64,000 nucleotides of DNA from Arcobacter sp. FWKO B (GTDB lineage Bacteria > Campylobacterota > Campylobacteria > Campylobacterales > Arcobacteraceae), in assembly GCF_014844135.1 (NCBI RefSeq), contig NZ_CP041403.1, positions 310,001-374,000 on the forward strand, written 5' to 3'. Positions 12,461 to 23,573 of the stretch are shown here, piece after piece (position 1 is the first letter of the stretch; every line of letters begins with the position of its first letter). The notes under the pieces were generated by a model that made no database searches, was not told where the DNA came from, and saw only the letters and a list, made by a program, of their open reading frames with translations. The position numbers and the translations under genes were made by a program.

Positions 12461-14953
12461 ATGAAAGCGATAGTTCTTGCAGGTGGATTTGGTACAAGAA
12501 TTCAACCACTAACAAATAGTATTCCAAAGCCGATGCTTCCTATTTTAAATAGACCTATGATGGAGCATATTATTTTAAAGCTAAGAGATGACTTAGGGGT
12601 AAAAGATATTGCAATATTACTTTATTTTATGCCTGAAGTTATAAAAGAGTACTTTAAAGATGGAAAAGAGTTTGGTGTAAATATTACATATTTTCTCCCT
12701 GATGATGACTATGGTACTGCTGGAGCTGTTGGATTTGCAAGAGAGTTTTTAGATGAAACATTTATTATTGTAAGTGGAGATTTAGTAACTGATTTTAAAT
12801 TTAGCGAAATTTATGATTTTCACAAACAAAAAAAGTCAAAACTTACTATTGGATTAACTCCTGTAGAAAACCCTTTACAATTTGGTGTTGTTATAGCAAA
12901 TGAAGATGGTGAAATTGAGAAGTTTCTAGAAAAGCCAAGCTGGGGTGAGGTGTTTAGCGATACTATCAATACAGGGATTTATATAATTGAGCCAGAGATA
13001 TTAAACTATATTCCACAAGATGAAAACTTTGATTTTGCGAAAGATTTATTCCCTACTTTGATGTCAAATAATATTACACTTTGGGGATGTCATATTGAAG
13101 GGTATTGGAGAGATGTTGGAAATCCTGAAAGCTATCGTGAGGTATATGAAGATATCTACAACTCTTTAATCATACTGCCAATCAAAGGTGAAACAAAAAT
13201 TTATGATGAAGGTATAGCTTATCTAGAAGAAGGCTCTAGTATAGCTGATAATACCAAAGTCAAAGGATTAGTAGTAATTGGCAAAAATACAAAAATTGAT
13301 GGTTTGTGCGAATTGCAAAATTGTGTTATTGGTAATAATTGTACAATTGATGAATCAGTAAAACTTGTCAATTCTACTTTTTGGTCAAACTGCTCAGTTG
13401 GCTCAAAAGCTAAAATCTATGATGGTGTAATATGTAATAATGTTCAACTATCAAAAAAAGTAAGAGCAAAAAATGGTGTAATTATTGCTGAAAATTGTAC
13501 CATTGATAAAAATGTATCTTTTGAAAATGATATTATGGTATGGCCAAATAAAACAATAGATGAAGACTCAATTGTAAGTAACAATGTAATTTGGGGAGAT
13601 AAATATAAAGCATCTATATTTCAAGCAGGTACTGTTGTAGGAAGGGCAAATATAGAACTTTCTTGTGATATGTCTATTAAACTTGCAGAATCACTTGGTA
13701 CCATATTACCAGTTGGAAGTAAGGTATATGTTTCAAGGGATTACCACAAAAGTTCTCGTATGCTCAAAAGAGCTTTTTTAAGTGGACTATTATCTACTGG
13801 TATAAATGTTATTGATACTTTTAATATCCCATCTGTTGTAATGAGATACAACCTATCAGTTCAAAATGATGTAATTGCTGGTGTTCATTTTAGACAATCA
13901 GCAAAAAACCAAGAAGAGAGTGAGATTTTGTTTTTTACAAATGAAGGTTTGCCTATAGATACAAACTTAGCAAAAAGTATAGAGAGAATTTTCTTTAGAG
14001 AAAATTTTAGAAGGGTTAGATTTAGTGAGATTGGTGATATTTTTGAAGATGTAAATTCAAATGAACGATACATTAACGCCATAAAAAATAAAGTAAATAC
14101 TAACTTATTCAAAAATAAGGATATAAAACTTGTAGCTGACTTAATGTTTGGTTCTACCTCAAAAATATACCCTAATATTCTAAATAGCCTTGGAATTGAG
14201 TCTATAGTATTAAATGCATATGAAGATGATAAACAATTACAACAACTTCCATCTGTAATAAAAAAAGCCCAAAGTGAAGTTGGTAAAATTGTAAAATCTA
14301 TCAATTTTGACTGTGGTGTACTTTTATTTCCAAATGGTCATAAGTTACAATTTGTAGATAATGATGGTGTACTTGTTAAAGACTATATTGCATTACTAGT
14401 AATGCTTCAGTTACTTGATACTCCTGATTCACCTATTAATAAAGTGTTTCTTCCTGCATGGGCACCTGATTTTATAAAATATAAGCACCTTCACATTACA
14501 AGAGGTAAGTTTTGTGGTGTAAAAGCAAAAGCATTACAAGAGTATGATTTAATAGCAAATACTGATGGTTTATTTGCATTTAGTGAATTTTCACTTAATT
14601 CTGATGCTGTTTTTGCAAGCTTTAAATTTCTAGAACTTTTAATACAACAACACACTACACTAAGTGATGTTGTCAAATCTATTCCAGAGTTTTGCTATCG
14701 AGGTGAGAACATAGCTTGTCCTAGTGCCTTAAAAGGCAAAATGATGAGAATGTTTTTAGAAGATGGTAAAGATAAAAAAAGCTCTCATATTGATGGTGTA
14801 AAAATTTGGGTAAATGATAATGAGTGGATTTTGATGGTACCTGATCAAAATTTAGAATTCTTAAATATATATATTCAAGCACAAAATCATAAAAATGCTG
14901 ATAAAATATTTAGCCAATACAAACAAAAAATAGATATATGGATAAATGAATAA
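12461..14953 (+). CDS. sugar-1-phosphate nucleotidyltransferase with degenerate phosphohexomutase domain
   Basis: This 830-residue protein has three parts. Residues 1-235 are a nucleotidyltransferase (VLAGGFGTRIQPLT, PKPMLPI, YWRDVGNPESY). About 250-375 is a left-handed beta-helix of hexapeptide repeats. About 385-830 is a phosphoglucomutase/phosphomannomutase fold. Family members are usually called mannose-1-phosphate guanylyltransferase/phosphomannomutase. Here the mutase part looks dead: the phosphoserine loop reads FRQSAKN around Ser480 with the following His-Asn lost, the DGDxDR metal loop is LFPNGHK (622-628), and the RPSGTEP phosphate loop is VPDQNLEF (793-800). The first domain is likely active. 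Because the operon encodes glycogen synthase but no glgC, it may make ADP- or UDP-glucose; this is inference. It ends in a 1-bp overlap with the GH57-GalT fusion. Confidence 0.8.
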   Translation: MKAIVLAGGFGTRIQPLTNSIPKPMLPILNRPMMEHIILKLRDDLGVKDIAILLYFMPEVIKEYFKDGKEFGVNITYFLPDDDYGTAGAVGFAREFLDETFIIVSGDLVTDFKFSEIYDFHKQKKSKLTIGLTPVENPLQFGVVIANEDGEIEKFLEKPSWGEVFSDTINTGIYIIEPEILNYIPQDENFDFAKDLFPTLMSNNITLWGCHIEGYWRDVGNPESYREVYEDIYNSLIILPIKGETKIYDEGIAYLEEGSSIADNTKVKGLVVIGKNTKIDGLCELQNCVIGNNCTIDESVKLVNSTFWSNCSVGSKAKIYDGVICNNVQLSKKVRAKNGVIIAENCTIDKNVSFENDIMVWPNKTIDEDSIVSNNVIWGDKYKASIFQAGTVVGRANIELSCDMSIKLAESLGTILPVGSKVYVSRDYHKSSRMLKRAFLSGLLSTGINVIDTFNIPSVVMRYNLSVQNDVIAGVHFRQSAKNQEESEILFFTNEGLPIDTNLAKSIERIFFRENFRRVRFSEIGDIFEDVNSNERYINAIKNKVNTNLFKNKDIKLVADLMFGSTSKIYPNILNSLGIESIVLNAYEDDKQLQQLPSVIKKAQSEVGKIVKSINFDCGVLLFPNGHKLQFVDNDGVLVKDYIALLVMLQLLDTPDSPINKVFLPAWAPDFIKYKHLHITRGKFCGVKAKALQEYDLIANTDGLFAFSEFSLNSDAVFASFKFLELLIQQHTTLSDVVKSIPEFCYRGENIACPSALKGKMMRMFLEDGKDKKSSHIDGVKIWVNDNEWILMVPDQNLEFLNIYIQAQNHKNADKIFSQYKQKIDIWINE

Positions 14954-17571
14954 TGGTTTATATTAACTTTATATGGCATATGCACCAACCTTATTACAGA
15001 GATAACTTAACTGGCAAGACAAAGATGCCTTGGGTATTTTTACATGCTATTAAAGATTACTATGATATGCCATATTTACTTAGTCAAAATCCAAATATCA
15101 AAGCAACATTCAATCTTGTCCCTTCACTTATAGAACAACTAAATCACTATATAAATAATGATGCAAATGATGAGTTATTAGATATTTTAACTAAAGATGT
15201 ATCAACTCTAAAAGATGAACAACTTGAGTTTTTAAACAGCTATTTATTTACTCCAAACGAAAAAAATATGATTAATATTTTTTGGAGATACAAGGAACTA
15301 AACACTAAATTTAAAAGTTCACAAAAAGGGTTGAAAATATTTGATGAGAGTGAGATTGAAGATGCTCAGGTATTGTTTTTGTTATCTTGGTGTGGTAATT
15401 ATTTAAAGAAAAACAATAAAACAATCAAAAACTTAATAACTCAAGGTGCAAACTATAACCATACACAAAAGTTGAGTTTGATAAATGAACTAATAAAATT
15501 CTTACCAGAAATACTAAAACTATATAAAAAATTAGCAAAAAAAGGGCAAATTGAGCTTTCAACAACTCCATATTACCACCCTATTTTACCTTTGCTTTTA
15601 GATATAAATAGTGCAAAAACAGCCAATGCAAATACAAACTTACCAAATATTGACCCACAAACCTTCAAAGAATTTGGCAAATCACAAATTACAAAAGCAA
15701 TAGAGTTGTTTGAGCAAACATTTGACTTTAAGCCAACTGGTTTTTGGCCAGCTGAGGGTTCAGTAAGCGAAGCAACAATTAAAATGATATCAAAACATGA
15801 TATAAAATGGATTGCTACAGATGAAGAAGTACTATACAAAAGTATCAAAAACCATACAAAAGAAAAACTTTACAATCTTTACCAACATAAAGAATACAAT
15901 ACTTATATGTTTTTTAGAGATAGACACATAAGTGATTTGATTGGTTTTGAATATTCCAAACTCGCTCCACAAATAGCAACGCTTGATTTTATAGACAAAA
16001 TAAAAAACATACAACTTCATGGCAATAAAGATTACTTAGTTAGTGTTATTCTTGATGGTGAAAATGCTTGGGAATTTTATGAAAATAATGGTGAAGAGTT
16101 TTTTAATAAATTATACAAAACATTAGAAGAAAATAACTCATTTATTAAAACTATTTTACCAAGTGAAGCAAAAGATTTAAAACTTGAAAAAATATCAATT
16201 GATTATATTCACCCTGGTAGTTGGATAAATGCAAATTTTGATATATGGATTGGAAAACCGCAAAAAAACAAAGCGTGGGAATTACTAGCACTTACAAAAG
16301 AAGACTATATAAAAAGTGCATCTACACTTAATAATAAAACAAATCAAAAAATACTTGAAGAGTTTGCAATAGCTCTTGGAAGTGATTGGTTTTGGTGGTA
16401 TGATGATGATCACTTTACCACACTAAAACCATTTTTTGACAATCTATTTAGACTGCATCTTCAAAATATATACACTTTAATGGGACAAAACATTCCTCAG
16501 CAAATTATTCACCCTATTGTGCCAGAAAATGAAGTGATACTTGCTAAATTTGGTGCAATGCATCAAGCAAATGAAATAAAATCAAAAGAATCAGAATTTA
16601 GATATTGCAAACTTACTAAAAGATGGGTTTTATTTGCTCCAAAAAGAGCAGACAGACCAAATAATTTCATTAAGAAAAAAGTAATAGCAGATGATTGTAT
16701 TTGCCCTTTTGATGCAGGAAATGAAAACTTAACTCCAAAAGAAATATTAAGAATCGGAGATAGCAAAAATTGGAGAGCAAGGGTAGTTCCAAATCTTTAT
16801 AATGTTTTATCAATAGATATAGAACCAGAAGGTAAAAAAGATGACTATTTTGATGTTTTTAGTGGTTTTGGTGCCCATGAGGTTATCATAGAAACACCAA
16901 AACATGGGCTTGAAATGTTTGATTATTCACTACAAGAGTTTGTAGACTACCTCCAAATTGCCAAAGATAGGCTTTCTAGTCTAAAACTTGACACAAGATT
17001 AAATTATGCTAGTTTATTTAAAAATCACGGCTCATTAGCTGGTGCTTCACTAAGTCACTCACACTCACAAATAATTGCACTACCATTTGTTCCAACTGAT
17101 GTTGCAGACGAAATAGACTATAAAAAAGAGTATTATAAAAAATACAAAAGAGCAATTTTAGATGACTTAGTATATGAAGAAAAACAATATGAAGAGAACT
17201 TGATTTTTGAAAATGAATCTTTTGTTTGTTATGCACCTTATGCTTCACGATTTCCTTATGAGGTAAAAATTGTTGCAAAAGATGAATATTCTTGTATAAC
17301 AGAGTTTGATGAAACAACCCTTATCAATCTTGCAAAATCTTTGGAGCTTATATTTAAAAAGTATAAAAATGTGCTAGATTATTTCTCCTTTAATATGTTG
17401 TTTAAAAATCACCCCTATGAAGGACATAACGAAAAATCAAAAGACTACTTTAGATTTTATGTCAATATTTTCCCAAGATTAAGTGGTATTGCTGGTTTTG
17501 AACTTGATTCAAAAGTCTATTTAAATAGTATTTTACCTAGTGTTGCTGCTAGTAGACTAAAAGAAGTATAG
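14953..17571 (+). CDS. GH57 glycoside hydrolase fused to GalT-family nucleotidyltransferase
   Basis: This 872-residue protein joins two enzymes. Residues 1 to about 525 are a GH57 catalytic domain opening with INFIWHMHQPYY, with Glu268 (WPAEGSVSE) as nucleophile and Asp368 (LDGENAWEFY) as acid/base, as in amylopullulanase-like members. Residues about 536-872 are a HIT-superfamily GalT domain: KRWVLFAPKRADRP, then RARVVPNLYN, then NHGSLAGASLSHSHSQ with the nucleotidyl-accepting His704 in HSHSQ (702-706). The zinc motif CPFC is altered to CICPFD (Cys582, Cys584, Asp587). No galE or galK is present, so Leloir galactose metabolism is unlikely. A plausible role is moving a nucleotidyl group between NDP-glucose and phosphate or glucose 1-phosphate, coupled to glucan hydrolysis; this is inference. 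Confidence 0.85.
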   Translation: MVYINFIWHMHQPYYRDNLTGKTKMPWVFLHAIKDYYDMPYLLSQNPNIKATFNLVPSLIEQLNHYINNDANDELLDILTKDVSTLKDEQLEFLNSYLFTPNEKNMINIFWRYKELNTKFKSSQKGLKIFDESEIEDAQVLFLLSWCGNYLKKNNKTIKNLITQGANYNHTQKLSLINELIKFLPEILKLYKKLAKKGQIELSTTPYYHPILPLLLDINSAKTANANTNLPNIDPQTFKEFGKSQITKAIELFEQTFDFKPTGFWPAEGSVSEATIKMISKHDIKWIATDEEVLYKSIKNHTKEKLYNLYQHKEYNTYMFFRDRHISDLIGFEYSKLAPQIATLDFIDKIKNIQLHGNKDYLVSVILDGENAWEFYENNGEEFFNKLYKTLEENNSFIKTILPSEAKDLKLEKISIDYIHPGSWINANFDIWIGKPQKNKAWELLALTKEDYIKSASTLNNKTNQKILEEFAIALGSDWFWWYDDDHFTTLKPFFDNLFRLHLQNIYTLMGQNIPQQIIHPIVPENEVILAKFGAMHQANEIKSKESEFRYCKLTKRWVLFAPKRADRPNNFIKKKVIADDCICPFDAGNENLTPKEILRIGDSKNWRARVVPNLYNVLSIDIEPEGKKDDYFDVFSGFGAHEVIIETPKHGLEMFDYSLQEFVDYLQIAKDRLSSLKLDTRLNYASLFKNHGSLAGASLSHSHSQIIALPFVPTDVADEIDYKKEYYKKYKRAILDDLVYEEKQYEENLIFENESFVCYAPYASRFPYEVKIVAKDEYSCITEFDETTLINLAKSLELIFKKYKNVLDYFSFNMLFKNHPYEGHNEKSKDYFRFYVNIFPRLSGIAGFELDSKVYLNSILPSVAASRLKEV

Positions 17572-17581
17572 GAGATACAAA

Positions 17582-19000
17582 ATGAATATATTATTTGCTT
17601 CAAGTGAAATTTTCCCATATGCCAAAAGTGGTGGATTAGCTGATGTTGCTCAAAGCTTACCTGAAGAACTAAGAAAGATTGCCCAAGTTTATACTATGAT
17701 GCCTTTATATCAAACTGTAGATAGACAAAATTACAATATAGTTTTTAGTGATTTCTCATTTGATATTTGGCTTCATGGAATAAGACATCAAATTGACCTA
17801 TACAAAAATGCAAATAATCCATATGAACTTTTTTTATATAACCCAATTTTATGTGATAGAGAAGGTTTATATCACGACAATTATGGTGACTTTGGAGACA
17901 ATCACTTAAGATTTGCTATTTTTTCATATGGTGTGATTGAAACCATGCTAAAACTTCAATTAAAAATTAATACTATTCATATCAATGATTGGCAAACTGC
18001 ACTTATAGCACTATTGGCAAAAACCAAGTATCACCTATCTCAAAAAATAGTTTTTACAATACACAATATTGCATATCAAGGGATATTTCACAAAAGTGTT
18101 ATGAATGAGCTTGAACTAAACTGGCAAGAGTGTTTTAAAAGTGATAGATTTGAATATTTTGATCAAGTAAATTTCTTAAAAGCTGGGATATTTTATAGTG
18201 ATGTTATAACAACAGTCAGTCCAACTTATGCAAATGAGATACAAACACCTTATTTTGGACATACACTAGATAATATGTTAATAACAAACAATTATAAACT
18301 AACAGGTATTATTAATGGCATTAGTTATGATGTATTTAATCCATCAACTGATGAGTATATTTATAAAAATTATGACAAACAAACTTATGAACTAAAATCA
18401 CAAAATAAAGTCAAACTATGTAAAGAACTAAATCTTGCTGAACCACATCGCCCTTTATTTGTTTTTATTGGAAGATTTACAAATCAAAAGGGAGTAGATT
18501 TGATAGTTCAAAGCCTACATCTTTTAAAAGACTTTGAGATAAATGTGGCTATTTTAGGAAGTGGTGAGAAATATTATAATGGTGTTTTTTCAAAACTAGT
18601 AGATAAATATCACAATATTACCATAAAAATTGGTTACGATGAAGCTCTTGCAAGAAAATTTTATGCAAGTGCAGACTTTTTACTTATGCCATCTGTTTTT
18701 GAGCCATGTGGGCTAAATCAAATGATTATGATGAGATATGGAGGGCTTCCAATAGTTGCAAGAACTGGTGGGCTTAGAGATAGTGTTGTAGATTTTACAG
18801 ACTTACATCATCACAATAAACATCAAGGTATTGGAGTAACTTTTGATGAGCATAGTATGTTTTGGTATATGCACGCTATTACAAAGGCTATTTCATTATA
18901 TGCAAATCAGAAGAAATATATAAAGTTTGCAAAACACAATATGAGTGTAGATAACTCTTGGAAAACTTCAGCCAAAGAGTATTTAAAGGTGTACAAATGA
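17582..19000 (+). CDS. glgA: glycogen (starch) synthase
   Basis: This 472-residue GT5 enzyme extends alpha-1,4-glucan from ADP- or UDP-glucose. The N-terminal sugar-nucleotide loop KSGGLADV (usually KTGGL), HINDWQTAL, TIHNIAYQG and the C-terminal PSVFEPCGLNQM with the catalytic Glu are all present, so it looks active. Length matches bacterial GlgA (about 477). Genes for the donor-making enzyme and the GH57-GalT fusion lie just upstream. Its stop overlaps the glucokinase start (ATGA). Sequence alone does not settle whether ADP- or UDP-glucose is used. Confidence 0.95.
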   Translation: MNILFASSEIFPYAKSGGLADVAQSLPEELRKIAQVYTMMPLYQTVDRQNYNIVFSDFSFDIWLHGIRHQIDLYKNANNPYELFLYNPILCDREGLYHDNYGDFGDNHLRFAIFSYGVIETMLKLQLKINTIHINDWQTALIALLAKTKYHLSQKIVFTIHNIAYQGIFHKSVMNELELNWQECFKSDRFEYFDQVNFLKAGIFYSDVITTVSPTYANEIQTPYFGHTLDNMLITNNYKLTGIINGISYDVFNPSTDEYIYKNYDKQTYELKSQNKVKLCKELNLAEPHRPLFVFIGRFTNQKGVDLIVQSLHLLKDFEINVAILGSGEKYYNGVFSKLVDKYHNITIKIGYDEALARKFYASADFLLMPSVFEPCGLNQMIMMRYGGLPIVARTGGLRDSVVDFTDLHHHNKHQGIGVTFDEHSMFWYMHAITKAISLYANQKKYIKFAKHNMSVDNSWKTSAKEYLKVYK

Positions 19001-19773
19001 ATTTATTTATAGATTTTGGTGGTACTAATTTTAGATATTGTTTTGATGATGGAGAAATTAAAGTTCTAAAAAGCAAAGAGACAGAATTAGTAAGCTTTAT
19101 AGAAACACAAATTGTACTAAAAAGAGATATTAAAAAGATATATATTTCCTTTGCAGGACAAGTAAAAGATGGTAAAATACTTTCTGCTCCAAATATCAAA
19201 ATTCAAACATTTGATTTAAAACACTATATAAAAGAGAAATATGATATAGATATCTTTATAGAAAATGACCTAAACTGTGCTGCAATTTATGAATATTCAA
19301 AGTACCAAAATGCCAAAATATTGGCATTGTTTTATATAGGTACTGGCTTTGGTAGTGCATTTATGATAAATGGAAAACTTTTAAGTGGAAAAGACAATAT
19401 TGCAGGCGAAATAGGACATATTCCATATAAAAAAAAGGATTTGGGCTGTAAATGTGGTAGAAATGACTGTTTAGAACTTAGCGTAAGTGGCAAGGTTTTT
19501 GGTGAAAGAACATTCGAAAACTCGCCAACAAGCACACAAGAAGATTTTTTGGATGGATTAAAATTTGCATTTCATACTGTATTAAATTTATTTGATCCAG
19601 ATGTATTTGTATTAGGTGGAAGTGTAGTAAAAAACAACCCTTTTATTATAGATTTCTTAAAAAAAGAGTATAATGATAGCTCATTTAAAGGGATTAGAAG
19701 TGATCTTCAAATATTTTTATCAGATATCAATGATGCCAATATTGAAGGTTTAAAAATAATTTCAAAAGGATAA
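18997..19773 (+). CDS. ROK family glucokinase
   Basis: This 258-residue ROK-family sugar kinase probably forms glucose 6-phosphate from glucose released by GH57 enzymes. The phosphate-1 loop is FIDFGGTNFRYCF, the sugar/zinc region is GEIGHIPYKKKDLGC followed by KCGRNDCLE (zinc cysteines), and the late FVLGGSVV strand is typical. The ATG at 18997 overlaps the glgA stop by 4 bp and opens straight into the phosphate loop. An upstream in-frame ATG at 18958 lies inside glgA and adds nothing typical of the family. Other ROK substrates such as N-acetylmannosamine or fructose are possible, but the operon favours glucose. Confidence 0.87.
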   Translation: MNLFIDFGGTNFRYCFDDGEIKVLKSKETELVSFIETQIVLKRDIKKIYISFAGQVKDGKILSAPNIKIQTFDLKHYIKEKYDIDIFIENDLNCAAIYEYSKYQNAKILALFYIGTGFGSAFMINGKLLSGKDNIAGEIGHIPYKKKDLGCKCGRNDCLELSVSGKVFGERTFENSPTSTQEDFLDGLKFAFHTVLNLFDPDVFVLGGSVVKNNPFIIDFLKKEYNDSSFKGIRSDLQIFLSDINDANIEGLKIISKG

Positions 19774-19775
19774 AA

Positions 19776-21419
19776 ATGTCGAATTTTATAGAATATAATA
19801 TTAATGAAAAATACAAAACAAGTGTAGCTTATTTTTCGATGGAGTTTGCTATCCATCAAGCACTAAAGATTTACAGTGGTGGGTTAGGCTTTTTAGCTGG
19901 TTCACATATGAGAAGTGCTTATGATTTAGGTCAAAATGTACTTGGTATTGGGATACTTTGGAGCTTTGGGTATTATGATCAAGCAAGAGATGAAGATAGA
20001 AACCTTAAAGTTGAATTTAGAAGAAAGAGATACTTCTTCTTGCAAGATTTGGGTATAAGTGTAGATGTAGTTATAAATGCAAAAGTTGTAAAAGTAAAAG
20101 CTTTTTTAGTACCTTGTGAAACATTTAATACTGCTCCAATTATACTTCTTTCTACCGATACCGAAGAAAACGACTATCTAAGCAGAACTATCACCCATAA
20201 ACTTTATGATGCAAACGAAGAAGCTAGAATTGCCCAAGAAATTGTTCTTGGTATTGGTGGTGCTAAGGTTTTAGAAGCTTTACATATCAAACCCAAAATA
20301 TATCATATGAATGAAGGGCATGCTCTTCCTTTAGTATTCGAACTGCGAAATAAACACAAAAATTTTGATGAGATGAAGAAAAAAATAGTTTTCACAACAC
20401 ATACTCCAGAAGCTGCTGGTAATGAAGAACACTCTCTTGCACTATTGTATAAAATGGGCTTTTTTGCTTCATTATCAATAGAAGAAGTACAAACATTTAT
20501 GGGAAGTACAAGTGATACATTTAGTCTTACTGTTGGTGCATTAAAAGCTGCAAAAATCTCAAATGGTGTATCAAAACTTCACTCTAAAGTAGCTTGTAAA
20601 ATGTGGAGTCATGTGGAAAATAAATGTGATATAGTTCATATTACAAATGCACAAAATAGAAGATACTGGGTAGATAAAGGGCTTTTAAAAGCACTTGATG
20701 AGCACGAAGATTATGAGCTTGAAGCTAGAAAAAAACATCTAAAAAGAATATTGTTTGATGAAGTTGCAAATCAAACTGGTAAAATGTTTGACCCAAATAT
20801 TCTAACAATTGTATGGGCAAGAAGATTTGCAGAGTACAAACGCCCAGGGCTTTTAAAATACGATTTCCAAAAGTTTTTAGAACTTGTAAATAGAAAAGAT
20901 ATGCCAGTGCAAATAATATGGGCTGGAAAACCTTATCCATTTGATAATGGTGCTATAAATATTTTTAATGAAATAAGCTATATAAGCAAACATCTAAAAA
21001 ATGTTGCAGTAATGATAGGATATGAGCTAAATTTATCTAAAATGTTAAAAAAAGGGGCTGATATTTGGCTCAACACTCCAAGAATCACAAAAGAAGCAAG
21101 TGGTACAAGTGGAATGAGTGCAGCTATGAATGGAGCGATAAATCTTTCTACACTTGATGGATGGCATCCTGAGTTTGAAAAGCATGGAGTAAATAGCTTT
21201 ACTATTCCTGCGGTTGATGAAAATTTACCAATAGAAGAACAAGATATTTTGGATAACAAAGCTTTAATGGATATTTTATTAGATGAAGTTATTCCTATGT
21301 ATTACCAAGACAATACTAAATGGATGAATATAATGAAAAACTCGATGTTGGATACTCTAAATGCATTTGATTCTGGTAGAATGGCTCATGAGTATTATGT
21401 GAAAATGTATGATGTTTAA
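19776..21419 (+). CDS. GT35 glycogen/alpha-glucan phosphorylase-like protein lacking the PLP lysine
   Basis: This 547-residue member of the short alpha-glucan phosphorylase family normally releases glucose 1-phosphate from alpha-1,4-glucan using PLP. Family landmarks are SVAYFSMEF, YSGGLGFLAG, MNEGHALP, THTPEAAGNEEH, the phosphate-binding Arg and Lys of WARRFAEYKRP, and EASGTSGMSAAMNGA. In active phosphorylases that last motif reads GTSGMK, where the Lys binds PLP. Here codon 21117-21119 (AGT) gives Ser448. The rest of the active site looks conserved and the frame is intact, so this is not decay by frameshift. It may be inactive and regulatory, or may have another glucosyl-transfer chemistry. 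It sits 2 bp after glucokinase in the glycogen operon. Confidence 0.85.
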   Translation: MSNFIEYNINEKYKTSVAYFSMEFAIHQALKIYSGGLGFLAGSHMRSAYDLGQNVLGIGILWSFGYYDQARDEDRNLKVEFRRKRYFFLQDLGISVDVVINAKVVKVKAFLVPCETFNTAPIILLSTDTEENDYLSRTITHKLYDANEEARIAQEIVLGIGGAKVLEALHIKPKIYHMNEGHALPLVFELRNKHKNFDEMKKKIVFTTHTPEAAGNEEHSLALLYKMGFFASLSIEEVQTFMGSTSDTFSLTVGALKAAKISNGVSKLHSKVACKMWSHVENKCDIVHITNAQNRRYWVDKGLLKALDEHEDYELEARKKHLKRILFDEVANQTGKMFDPNILTIVWARRFAEYKRPGLLKYDFQKFLELVNRKDMPVQIIWAGKPYPFDNGAINIFNEISYISKHLKNVAVMIGYELNLSKMLKKGADIWLNTPRITKEASGTSGMSAAMNGAINLSTLDGWHPEFEKHGVNSFTIPAVDENLPIEEQDILDNKALMDILLDEVIPMYYQDNTKWMNIMKNSMLDTLNAFDSGRMAHEYYVKMYDV

Positions 21420-21440: not shown

Positions 21441-21986
21441 TTGAATATGAATTTTAGTAATGAATTAATTGAAAGAAGTTTATCAAATAGTTGTGGTACT
21501 TCAAGTGGTGGAAATATTAAGAAAACAGAAACTTTAAATGATGGTACAAAAATATATCCTATTCCAAATAGGTATTTTAAAGATAAACTAACATTACTTC
21601 CAATTAATCCAAATCACTCTTTTGTGTATTGGGAAGTTACAAATGATACACTTAAAAAGTTTGATATCAACCCTGAAGATGTACAACTATCATTTAAAAT
21701 TTATGATGAGCAGAGCAATGAAATACTAAATTTCGATTCACATTTTTCAATTGGTGATTATTATATTACTCATACCACTAGCCACAAAGCAATGTATGCA
21801 AAACTATTTTTAAAAAATAGTGATAGTTTGATTTTTATTTTAAAATCAAACATAATAGGTGTTCTTGAAGATTCACTAAAATCAGGACTCAAATCAAAAA
21901 TCATTGATAGTTTATTAGGTGATAATGAACAATACTATAACTCAAAACTTCTTACTATAAGTTCAAGTTCATTAGGGGGCAAATAG
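21441..21986 (+). CDS. DUF4912 domain-containing protein
   Basis: This 181-residue protein has no signal peptide and no membrane segment. From about residue 35 it matches the DUF4912 pattern (IPNRYFKDKLTLLPINP, then FVYWEVTNDTL), a small beta-rich domain often encoded beside alpha-glucan enzymes. The first 30 residues are Ser/Gly rich and probably flexible. Its stop codon directly abuts the start of the GH57 branching enzyme, so the two are likely made together. A role as glucan-binding or enzyme-partner protein is inference; no catalytic motif is seen. Confidence 0.8.
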   Translation: MNMNFSNELIERSLSNSCGTSSGGNIKKTETLNDGTKIYPIPNRYFKDKLTLLPINPNHSFVYWEVTNDTLKKFDINPEDVQLSFKIYDEQSNEILNFDSHFSIGDYYITHTTSHKAMYAKLFLKNSDSLIFILKSNIIGVLEDSLKSGLKSKIIDSLLGDNEQYYNSKLLTISSSSLGGK

Positions 21987-23573
21987 ATGATACAAGGATA
22001 TTGGATACCAGTTTTACACTCACATCTTCCTTTTGTAAAGCACCCTGAATATGAGAATTTTTTGGAAGAATTTTGGCTTTTTGAAGCAATAAGTGAGTGT
22101 TATATTCCACTACTTAAAAGACTAAAAAAGCTCGAAGATGAAAATATTGATTTTGCACTTACAGTATCAGTAACTCCTCCACTTGCAGAGATGCTTGATG
22201 ATGAGCACTTGATGGAAAAATATGAAAGATATCTTGATAAACTTATAGAACTAGGTGAAAAAGAGGTAATTAGAACTGCTAACAGTGAGTATGAAAATAT
22301 TGCAAAATTTTATCTATACTTTTTCAAAGAAACAAAAGAGTTTTTTGATGGATTTTTAAATAAAAAAGTTTTAAATGGGTATAGATATTTTTATGATAAA
22401 AATAAACTTGAGATTATCACTTGTGGTGCAACTCACGGTTTTTTACCACTTTTAAGTGTAAATAAACAAGCTGTAGTTGCTCAAATAAAAGTTGCAGTAA
22501 TGTCTCATATCAAACATTTTAACAAACCACCAAAAGGGATTTGGCTTCCTGAGTGTGCATATTATGATGGTTTGGATGAAATACTAAAAGAAAATGGTAT
22601 TGAATTTTTTATTTTGGATGCACATGGTATTGTATATGCAAATCCTACACCAAAATACGGTGTATACGCACCTATTATGACTCCAAATAAAGTAGCAGTT
22701 TTTGGAAGAGATAATGAATCTTCAAAACAAGTTTGGAGCTCTAAAGAGGGCTATCCAGGAGATTTTTGTTATCGAGATTTTTATAGAGATATAGGATATG
22801 ATCTTGATTTTGAGTATATCAAAGATTACATCAATCCAGATGGAGCAAGGGTATTTACTGGTTTTAAATATCACAAAATTACAGGAAATAGTGACTATAA
22901 AGAGATATATGACCCATATATAGCATCGCTAAAAACCATAGAACACGCACAAAACTTCCACTTCAATAGGGAAAAACAAATACAAAATATAAGTTTACTT
23001 ATGGATAAAGCTCCTATGGTAGTATCACCTTATGATGCAGAATTATTTGGGCATTGGTGGTTTGAAGGACCTGAATTTTTATATAATATGTTTAAAGAAA
23101 TAGACAAACACAAAGTAATCAAAGCAATTACCCCTGCACAATATATAGATATGTCATATGATAATACTGTAGCAAAGCCACACCCATCTTCTTGGGGTGA
23201 TGAGGGTTATTATGATGTATGGCTAAATAAATCTAATGATTGGATATATAGGCATCTTCATGAGATGGCTGATGTCATGGTTGAGTTTGCAAATATATAT
23301 AAAAATAGTGCAACTCAAAACCAAGAAAGACTCTTAAATCAAATGGCAAGAGAATTACTTCTTGCCCAAAGTAGTGATTGGGCTTTTTTAATGACTACTG
23401 CAACAGCTACAGAATATAGTGTGGCAAGAACAAAAGAGCATATCCATAATTTCTTCAAAATAAAAGATATGATAGATAACAATTACTTTGATAATGATTT
23501 TTTCACAAAAATTGGTGACAAAAACTCAATATTTGATTTTATAGATTTTAAAATATACTGTACAAAACAATAA
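21987..23573 (+). CDS. GH57 1,4-alpha-glucan branching enzyme
   Basis: This 528-residue GH57 enzyme of the Thermus/Thermococcus branching-enzyme type forms alpha-1,6 branches in glycogen. It opens with IPVLHSHLPFVKHPE. The nucleophile Glu is in WLPECAYYDG, the acid/base Asp is in SPYDAELFGHWWFEGP, and a helical C-terminal region from about 400 (HPSSWGDEGYYDVWLN) is typical of the branching subfamily. It replaces a GH13 GlgB, which is absent from the window. It is the last gene of the operon; a hairpin overlaps its stop codon. Alpha-amylase activity is possible but less likely. Confidence 0.9.
   Translation: MIQGYWIPVLHSHLPFVKHPEYENFLEEFWLFEAISECYIPLLKRLKKLEDENIDFALTVSVTPPLAEMLDDEHLMEKYERYLDKLIELGEKEVIRTANSEYENIAKFYLYFFKETKEFFDGFLNKKVLNGYRYFYDKNKLEIITCGATHGFLPLLSVNKQAVVAQIKVAVMSHIKHFNKPPKGIWLPECAYYDGLDEILKENGIEFFILDAHGIVYANPTPKYGVYAPIMTPNKVAVFGRDNESSKQVWSSKEGYPGDFCYRDFYRDIGYDLDFEYIKDYINPDGARVFTGFKYHKITGNSDYKEIYDPYIASLKTIEHAQNFHFNREKQIQNISLLMDKAPMVVSPYDAELFGHWWFEGPEFLYNMFKEIDKHKVIKAITPAQYIDMSYDNTVAKPHPSSWGDEGYYDVWLNKSNDWIYRHLHEMADVMVEFANIYKNSATQNQERLLNQMARELLLAQSSDWAFLMTTATATEYSVARTKEHIHNFFKIKDMIDNNYFDNDFFTKIGDKNSIFDFIDFKIYCTKQ

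What the first reader, a model, noticed from the sequence alone, without database searches (positions are those of the whole stretch)
19776..21419. Glycogen phosphorylase homologue without the PLP-binding lysine
The motif that reads GTSGMK in short-form phosphorylases reads GTSGMS here (AGT codon 21117-21119, Ser448). Phosphorylases need the Lys-PLP Schiff base for catalysis. The reading frame is full length and other active-site motifs (WARRFAEYKRP, NEGHA, THTPEAAG) are kept, so selection seems to have retained the protein. It may be a non-PLP glucosyltransferase, a glucan-binding regulator, or the catalytic partner of another protein in the operon. Established knowledge: the PLP phosphate acts in GT35 catalysis. 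The alternative function is inference.
Basis: partly seen in the sequence, partly recalled or inferred. Interest (0 to 1): 0.75.

Follow-up and report, generated by a model that had tools for sequence, protein, structure and literature searches.

The report
Conserved phosphorylase subfamily lacking the PLP lysine
A glycogen-breaking enzyme gene here lacks the lysine that holds vitamin B6 in all textbook glycogen phosphorylases, and the loss is shared by a large, conserved branch of the family in three bacterial phyla whose members databases still label as ordinary phosphorylases.

Summary
The 547-codon gene at 19776-21419 is intact and reads GTSGMS, with AGT at 21117-21119. It is not an isolated mutation or a sequencing error. 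In 84 distinct homologues of about 550 aa from Campylobacterota, Bacteroidota and Verrucomicrobiota the PLP-lysine column is Thr, Ser or Ala, never Lys. They form one clade on a long stem, under purifying selection. The other active-site residues are fixed (R350, K355, H209, N291, E440, GTSG). A second swap goes with the loss: column 425, on the neighbouring helix, is Lys in 84/84 of these proteins and Val/Thr/Ile/Leu in 42/42 relatives that keep the PLP lysine. The rule was seen in two phyla and then held 29/29 in newly fetched Verrucomicrobiota. The genome has no other GT35, no GH13 and no GH77 enzyme. Neighbouring genes make or use glucose-1-phosphate. Best reading: still an alpha-glucan phosphorylase, working without the canonical Lys-PLP bond, more likely PLP-free than with the lysine relocated to 425. 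A review reports a PLP-independent archaeal phosphorylase; I could not get its sequence. Both genes sit in one operon in some relatives, so a different function is not excluded. No 3D coordinates were available, so geometry is inferred.

The parts
19776..21419 (+). Lys-less short-form GT35 homologue (547 aa), TIGR02094 family
   Evidence: model mean pLDDT 94.3, GT-B fold closest to Segatella copri glycogen phosphorylase 9l6i, Z 36.1
21117..21119 (+). codon 448, AGT = Ser, at the column of the PLP lysine (K646 of E. coli MalP, K680 of rabbit GP)
21048..21050 (+). codon 425, AAA = Lys; Lys in 84/84 Lys-less proteins, V/T/I/L in 42/42 Lys-bearing ones; helix 418-427
20811..20813 (+). codon 346, Val in 84/84 Lys-less proteins (Gly in 38/42 Lys-bearing), three residues before the RRF motif in the first C-domain strand
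20409..20411 (+). codon 212, Glu in 83/84 Lys-less proteins (V/L/I in 42/42 Lys-bearing), three residues after invariant His209; candidate new catalytic residue (inference)
20820..20840 (+). codons 349-355 RRFAEYK: phosphate-binding motif kept (R350 and K355 invariant; K355 aligns with MalP K540, a PLP-phosphate ligand)
21093..21113 (+). codons 440-446 EASGTSG: donor-glucose and phosphate loop kept
12461..14953 (+). operon neighbour: nucleotidyltransferase - phosphoglucomutase-like fusion (GlgC role)
14953..17571 (+). operon neighbour: GH57 - galactose-1-phosphate uridylyltransferase-like fusion
17582..19000 (+). operon neighbour: glycogen synthase GlgA (GT5)
18997..19773 (+). operon neighbour: ROK-family sugar kinase
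21441..21986 (+). operon neighbour: DUF4912 protein
21987..23573 (+). operon neighbour: GH57 branching enzyme

Best explanation
The gene encodes a member of an ancient, conserved branch of short-form alpha-glucan phosphorylases that lost the PLP-anchoring lysine once and rebuilt the cofactor pocket (S/T448, K425, V346, and E212 near the donor site). It most likely still releases glucose-1-phosphate from glycogen or maltodextrin. I commit to a PLP-free mechanism as the single most likely one: inorganic phosphate is held by the kept R350/K355 pair and the GTSG loop, as in other GT-B retaining enzymes, and K425 (perhaps with E212) takes over the charge and proton-transfer work of the PLP phosphate. 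Shown: the lysine loss, its single origin, the kept catalytic residues, the K425 swap, the gene context. Inferred: phosphorolysis, absence of PLP, the roles of K425 and E212. Any form of phosphorylase activity: about 0.6. The PLP-free version as stated: 0.38.
For: Only GT35 in the genome, and the only one in all 29 genomes tested that carry the Lys-less gene. These genomes mostly also hold a glycogen synthase, GT5 or, in several that lack full GT5, GT3. In 247 Bacteroidota genomes 26 carry the Lys-less gene and about 141 a Lys-bearing one, none both (expected about 15, computed; relatedness not corrected), as if one replaces the other. In Campylobacterota the gene lies beside PGM, Pgi, PFK and Pyk, the route from glucose-1-phosphate into glycolysis. 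The own genome has no GH13 or GH77. Donor-glucose and phosphate residues H209, N291, Y354, R350, K355, E440, GTSG are invariant. Precedent: Methanococcus maripaludis phosphorylase is reported PLP-independent (PMC12267944). Trehalose phosphorylases are retaining phosphorylases in GT4 (PMC8950772); that they work without PLP is from my own knowledge.
Against: In G053 and G086 a Lys-bearing GT35 lies in the same operon, and about ten Campylobacterota genomes carry both, so the two are not simply redundant. The long stem (1.39 changes per column) fits a change of function. PGM and GlgC neighbours also fit glucan synthesis. The Trp and Tyr that line the PLP in other phosphorylases are kept (W298, Y416), which leaves room for bound PLP. 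No activity or structure is known to me for any clade member found here.
Confidence: 0.38

Rival explanations
1. Relocated lysine: the enzyme is still a PLP-dependent phosphorylase, but the Schiff base is formed by K425 on the neighbouring helix instead of residue 448, much as the catalytic lysine moved in WNK kinases (analogy from own knowledge).
For: Perfect reciprocal swap K448/K425 in 126 distinct sequences, including 29/29 in a phylum barely sampled when the rule was seen. Of 13 columns that separate the two groups perfectly, 425 is the only one that gains a Lys. In the model 425 lies in helix 418-427 and 448 in the first turns of helix 445-451, which in this fold should be neighbours. 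PLP-phosphate ligands are kept.
Against: One evolutionary event on a long branch, so the swap counts as a single coincidence. Residue 425 lies about one helical turn further from the active-site end than 448 (inference). No coordinates were available to measure reach. Invariant V346 adds bulk near the strand under the pocket (inference).
Confidence: 0.25
2. Nucleotide-sugar glucosyltransferase: with the PLP gone, ADP- or UDP-glucose occupies the old cofactor site and the protein elongates glucan, like GT5 or GT3 synthases.
For: GT-B fold with R-x4-K and E-x7-S/T arrangement; the model matches ADP-bound starch synthase 6gne and E. coli glycogen synthase 3cop nearly as well as classical phosphorylases (Z 32.5 and 32.3). 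GlgC-like and GlgA genes are in the operon. Coexistence with a Lys-bearing phosphorylase in some genomes.
Against: GlgA-profile scores of Lys-less proteins (19 to 50 bits, some none) overlap those of Lys-bearing relatives (up to 41 bits, some none). Genomes with it mostly already have a GT5 or GT3 synthase.
Confidence: 0.2
3. Catalytically inactive glucan-binding protein that regulates or tethers the other glycogen enzymes.
For: Loss of the cofactor lysine; co-operon Lys-bearing enzyme in G053 and G086.
Against: All donor-site and phosphate residues are invariant in 84 sequences, which a binding-only role would not need; in most genomes it is the only GT35.
Confidence: 0.12

Closest known systems
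Short-form alpha-glucan phosphorylases, TIGR02094, GT35 (for example Segatella copri glycogen phosphorylase, PDB 9l6i)
   Same: Fold (Z 36), about 30-40% identity, donor-glucose and phosphate motifs, GTSG loop
   Different: No PLP lysine; K425, V346, P386, E212 instead of V/T, G, A, V/L; shorter than the 9l6i chain (547 against 852 aa)
Methanococcus maripaludis glycogen phosphorylase (reported PLP-independent; cited in PMC12267944)
   Same: Possibly the same chemistry without PLP
   Different: Archaeal; sequence not obtainable here, so it is unknown whether it lacks the lysine or belongs to this clade
Classical glycogen/maltodextrin phosphorylases (E. coli MalP, rabbit GP)
   Same: GT-B fold, ungapped alignment through the cofactor helices, R and K of the phosphate site
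   Different: MalP K646 / GP K680 replaced by Ser; position 425 is Ile in the two classical enzymes whose alignments were printed (9maq, 4l22)
GT5 glycogen/starch synthases
   Same: GT-B fold, R-x4-K, catalytic Glu loop
   Different: Far below the GlgA family cut-off; no evidence of nucleotide-sugar use

Membership tests
TIGR02094 alpha-glucan family phosphorylase (GT35) | Score above the curated cut-off | tested here: met
   449.5 bits against 191.7
TIGR02094 alpha-glucan family phosphorylase (GT35) | GT-B fold like solved phosphorylases | tested here: met
   Model pLDDT 94.3; 9l6i Z 36.1, rmsd 1.9 over 534 residues
TIGR02094 alpha-glucan family phosphorylase (GT35) | Lysine that forms the PLP Schiff base (GTSGMK) | tested here: not met
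   Ser448; T/S/A in all 84 clade members
TIGR02094 alpha-glucan family phosphorylase (GT35) | Phosphate-site Arg/Lys and donor-glucose residues | tested here: met
   R350, K355, H209, N291, E440 and the GTSG loop invariant
TIGR02094 alpha-glucan family phosphorylase (GT35) | Bound PLP and phosphorolysis of alpha-1,4-glucan | not testable with these tools
   Needs purified protein
GT5 glycogen synthase (TIGR02095) | Score above the curated cut-off | tested here: not met
   28.4 bits against 328
PLP-independent phosphorylase of Methanococcus maripaludis | Sequence relationship and same residue at the PLP-Lys column | not tested
   Paper and sequence not held

The most novel reading that the evidence does not exclude
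The PLP lysine of a glycogen phosphorylase has moved to another helix (448 to 425) in a single ancient event, giving a phosphorylase with a relocated Schiff base that is now spread over three phyla.
Probability: 0.25. Interest if true: 0.8.

Novelty: new variant of a known kind. Interest (0 to 1): 0.6.

Why it matters
PLP bound to one lysine is treated as the hallmark of glycogen phosphorylase. A whole conserved branch without it, annotated as glgP in RefSeq, means that routine annotation hides either a PLP-free phosphorylase, a relocated cofactor lysine, or a different glucosyltransferase. Each would change how glycogen use is inferred in these bacteria, and the K425/S448 pair gives a direct mutational test.

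Tried and rejected
Sequencing error or young pseudogene: rejected by homologues with S/T/A and by pN well below pS. A second, Lys-bearing glgP elsewhere in the genome: none. Shift towards the GT5 profile as a sign of nucleotide-sugar use: no shift. A triplet E417-S421-K425 as a perfectly clade-specific helix face: it did not survive the larger set, where of the three only K425 separates perfectly. Lys319 as the replacement: rejected, since some Lys-bearing relatives also have Lys there. Measuring 425-448 distances: no coordinates are handed to the Python box. Papers: in the held library no paper that my searches returned described this clade; the M. maripaludis paper is not held. Viral contigs gave one distant hit only. 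A second AlphaFold model, of the Lys-bearing relative L113, added nothing without coordinates.

Full report
Check of the observation. The gene at 19776-21419 is an intact 547-codon frame. Codon 448 (21117-21119) is AGT, so the motif reads GTSGMS. The protein is a clear member of TIGR02094 by score (449.5 bits, cut-off 191.7). The window lies in a complete 2.24-Mb genome that has one GT35 gene only.

The lysine is missing in a whole clade. Homologues were taken from relatives, GTDB species genomes, Campylobacterota, Bacteroidota, plasmids and Verrucomicrobiota. In 84 distinct proteins of about 550 aa the PLP-Lys column holds Thr (48), Ser (34) or Ala (2); in 42 others it holds Lys. On a tree built without columns 425 and 448 the Lys-less proteins form one group with support 100 and a stem of 1.39 changes per column (quick method; the nearest Lys-bearing row, L113, is on a long branch, so its exact place is unsure). 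The gene is under purifying selection: pN about 0.11 against pS 0.77-0.80 with the two closest homologues.

A compensating change. Comparing the two groups showed that column 425 is Lys in every Lys-less protein and V/I/L/T in every Lys-bearing one (99 sequences). The rule was then checked on freshly fetched Verrucomicrobiota, a phylum represented by only a few sequences when the rule was seen: 18 of 18 Lys-less have K425, 11 of 11 Lys-bearing have V or T. In the full set 13 columns separate the groups perfectly, and 425 is the only one that gains a lysine. The profile alignment to solved classical phosphorylases runs without gaps through this stretch and puts an Ile of the LIPA motif at 425. 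In the model (pLDDT 94.3) residue 425 is in helix 418-427 and 448 in helix 445-451; in a Rossmann-like domain these two helices follow consecutive strands and should pack side by side (inference). Because the clade arose once, the swap is one event and could be a coincidence of a long branch; its position is what makes it suggestive. That rabbit GP residues 649, 650 and 653 of the same helix touch PLP is from memory and was not tested.

What is kept. R350, K355, Y354, H209, N132, N291, E180, E440, the GTSG loop and the SGGLG loop are invariant or nearly so in both groups. K355 aligns with MalP K540, a ligand of the PLP phosphate, and 448 with MalP K646, which carries PLP (residue roles from PMC11046441). 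The fold matches Segatella copri phosphorylase best (Z 36.1), with E. coli MalP at 33.2 and GT5 synthases at about 32.

Context. In the window the gene sits between a ROK kinase and a DUF4912/GH57 branching-enzyme pair, after GlgC-PGM, GH57-GalT and GlgA. In other Campylobacterota it lies beside Pgi, PGM, PFK or Pyk. The own genome has no GH13 and no GH77. In 29 genomes with the Lys-less gene no other GT35 is found; 20 of 29 have a full GT5 synthase and five of the nine that do not have a GT3 synthase. In Bacteroidota 26 genomes have the Lys-less gene, about 141 (my count of the table at E below 1e-30) a Lys-bearing one, and none both; the chance of no overlap is about 4e-11 if genomes were independent, which they are not. 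In Campylobacterota about ten genomes have both, and in G053 and G086 the order is GT35-Lys, PGM, Pgi, Lys-less GT35 in one run of genes. So it can stand in for the usual enzyme in some lineages and works beside it in others.

Interpretation. A phosphorylase role explains the kept active site, the glucose-1-phosphate neighbours and the exclusive distribution. It can work either without PLP or with PLP on K425. A PLP-independent glycogen phosphorylase has been reported from Methanococcus maripaludis (cited in PMC12267944), which makes the PLP-free version the safer bet, but its sequence could not be compared. Nucleotide-sugar transfer is possible on structural grounds but has no positive sequence support. 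A dead regulator is least likely, given the invariant active site.

Verdict. Observation confirmed. It is a conserved Lys-less subfamily, a new variant of a known kind. The mechanism is undecided between PLP-free and relocated lysine, and this can be settled by a few standard assays.

Noticed in passing
14953-17571: GH57 domain fused to a galactose-1-phosphate uridylyltransferase-like domain in one 872-aa protein; in other Campylobacterota (L129, L134) the two are separate genes.
   Followed up: partly
12461-14953: Sugar-1-phosphate nucleotidyltransferase fused to a phosphoglucomutase-like domain, apparently the GlgC of this operon.
   Followed up: no
21441-21986: Small DUF4912 protein encoded between the Lys-less GT35 and the branching enzyme, conserved in L027 and L028.
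   Followed up: partly
L129:7426-14052 and L130:5587-12177: A Lys-bearing and a Lys-less GT35 in the same run of genes with PGM and Pgi between them.
   Followed up: yes
L118:3947-6082: On a Runella rosea plasmid the Lys-less glgP is followed by a pyridoxamine 5'-phosphate oxidase family gene.
   Followed up: no
Bacteroidota genomes (e.g. G339, G394, G531): About 270-aa frames matching only the N-terminal half of the GlgA profile, seen in many Bacteroidota genomes.
   Followed up: no
G101:C1:456702-458231 (L057): A GT35 copy broken by several stops or frameshifts in a Campylobacterota genome.
   Followed up: no
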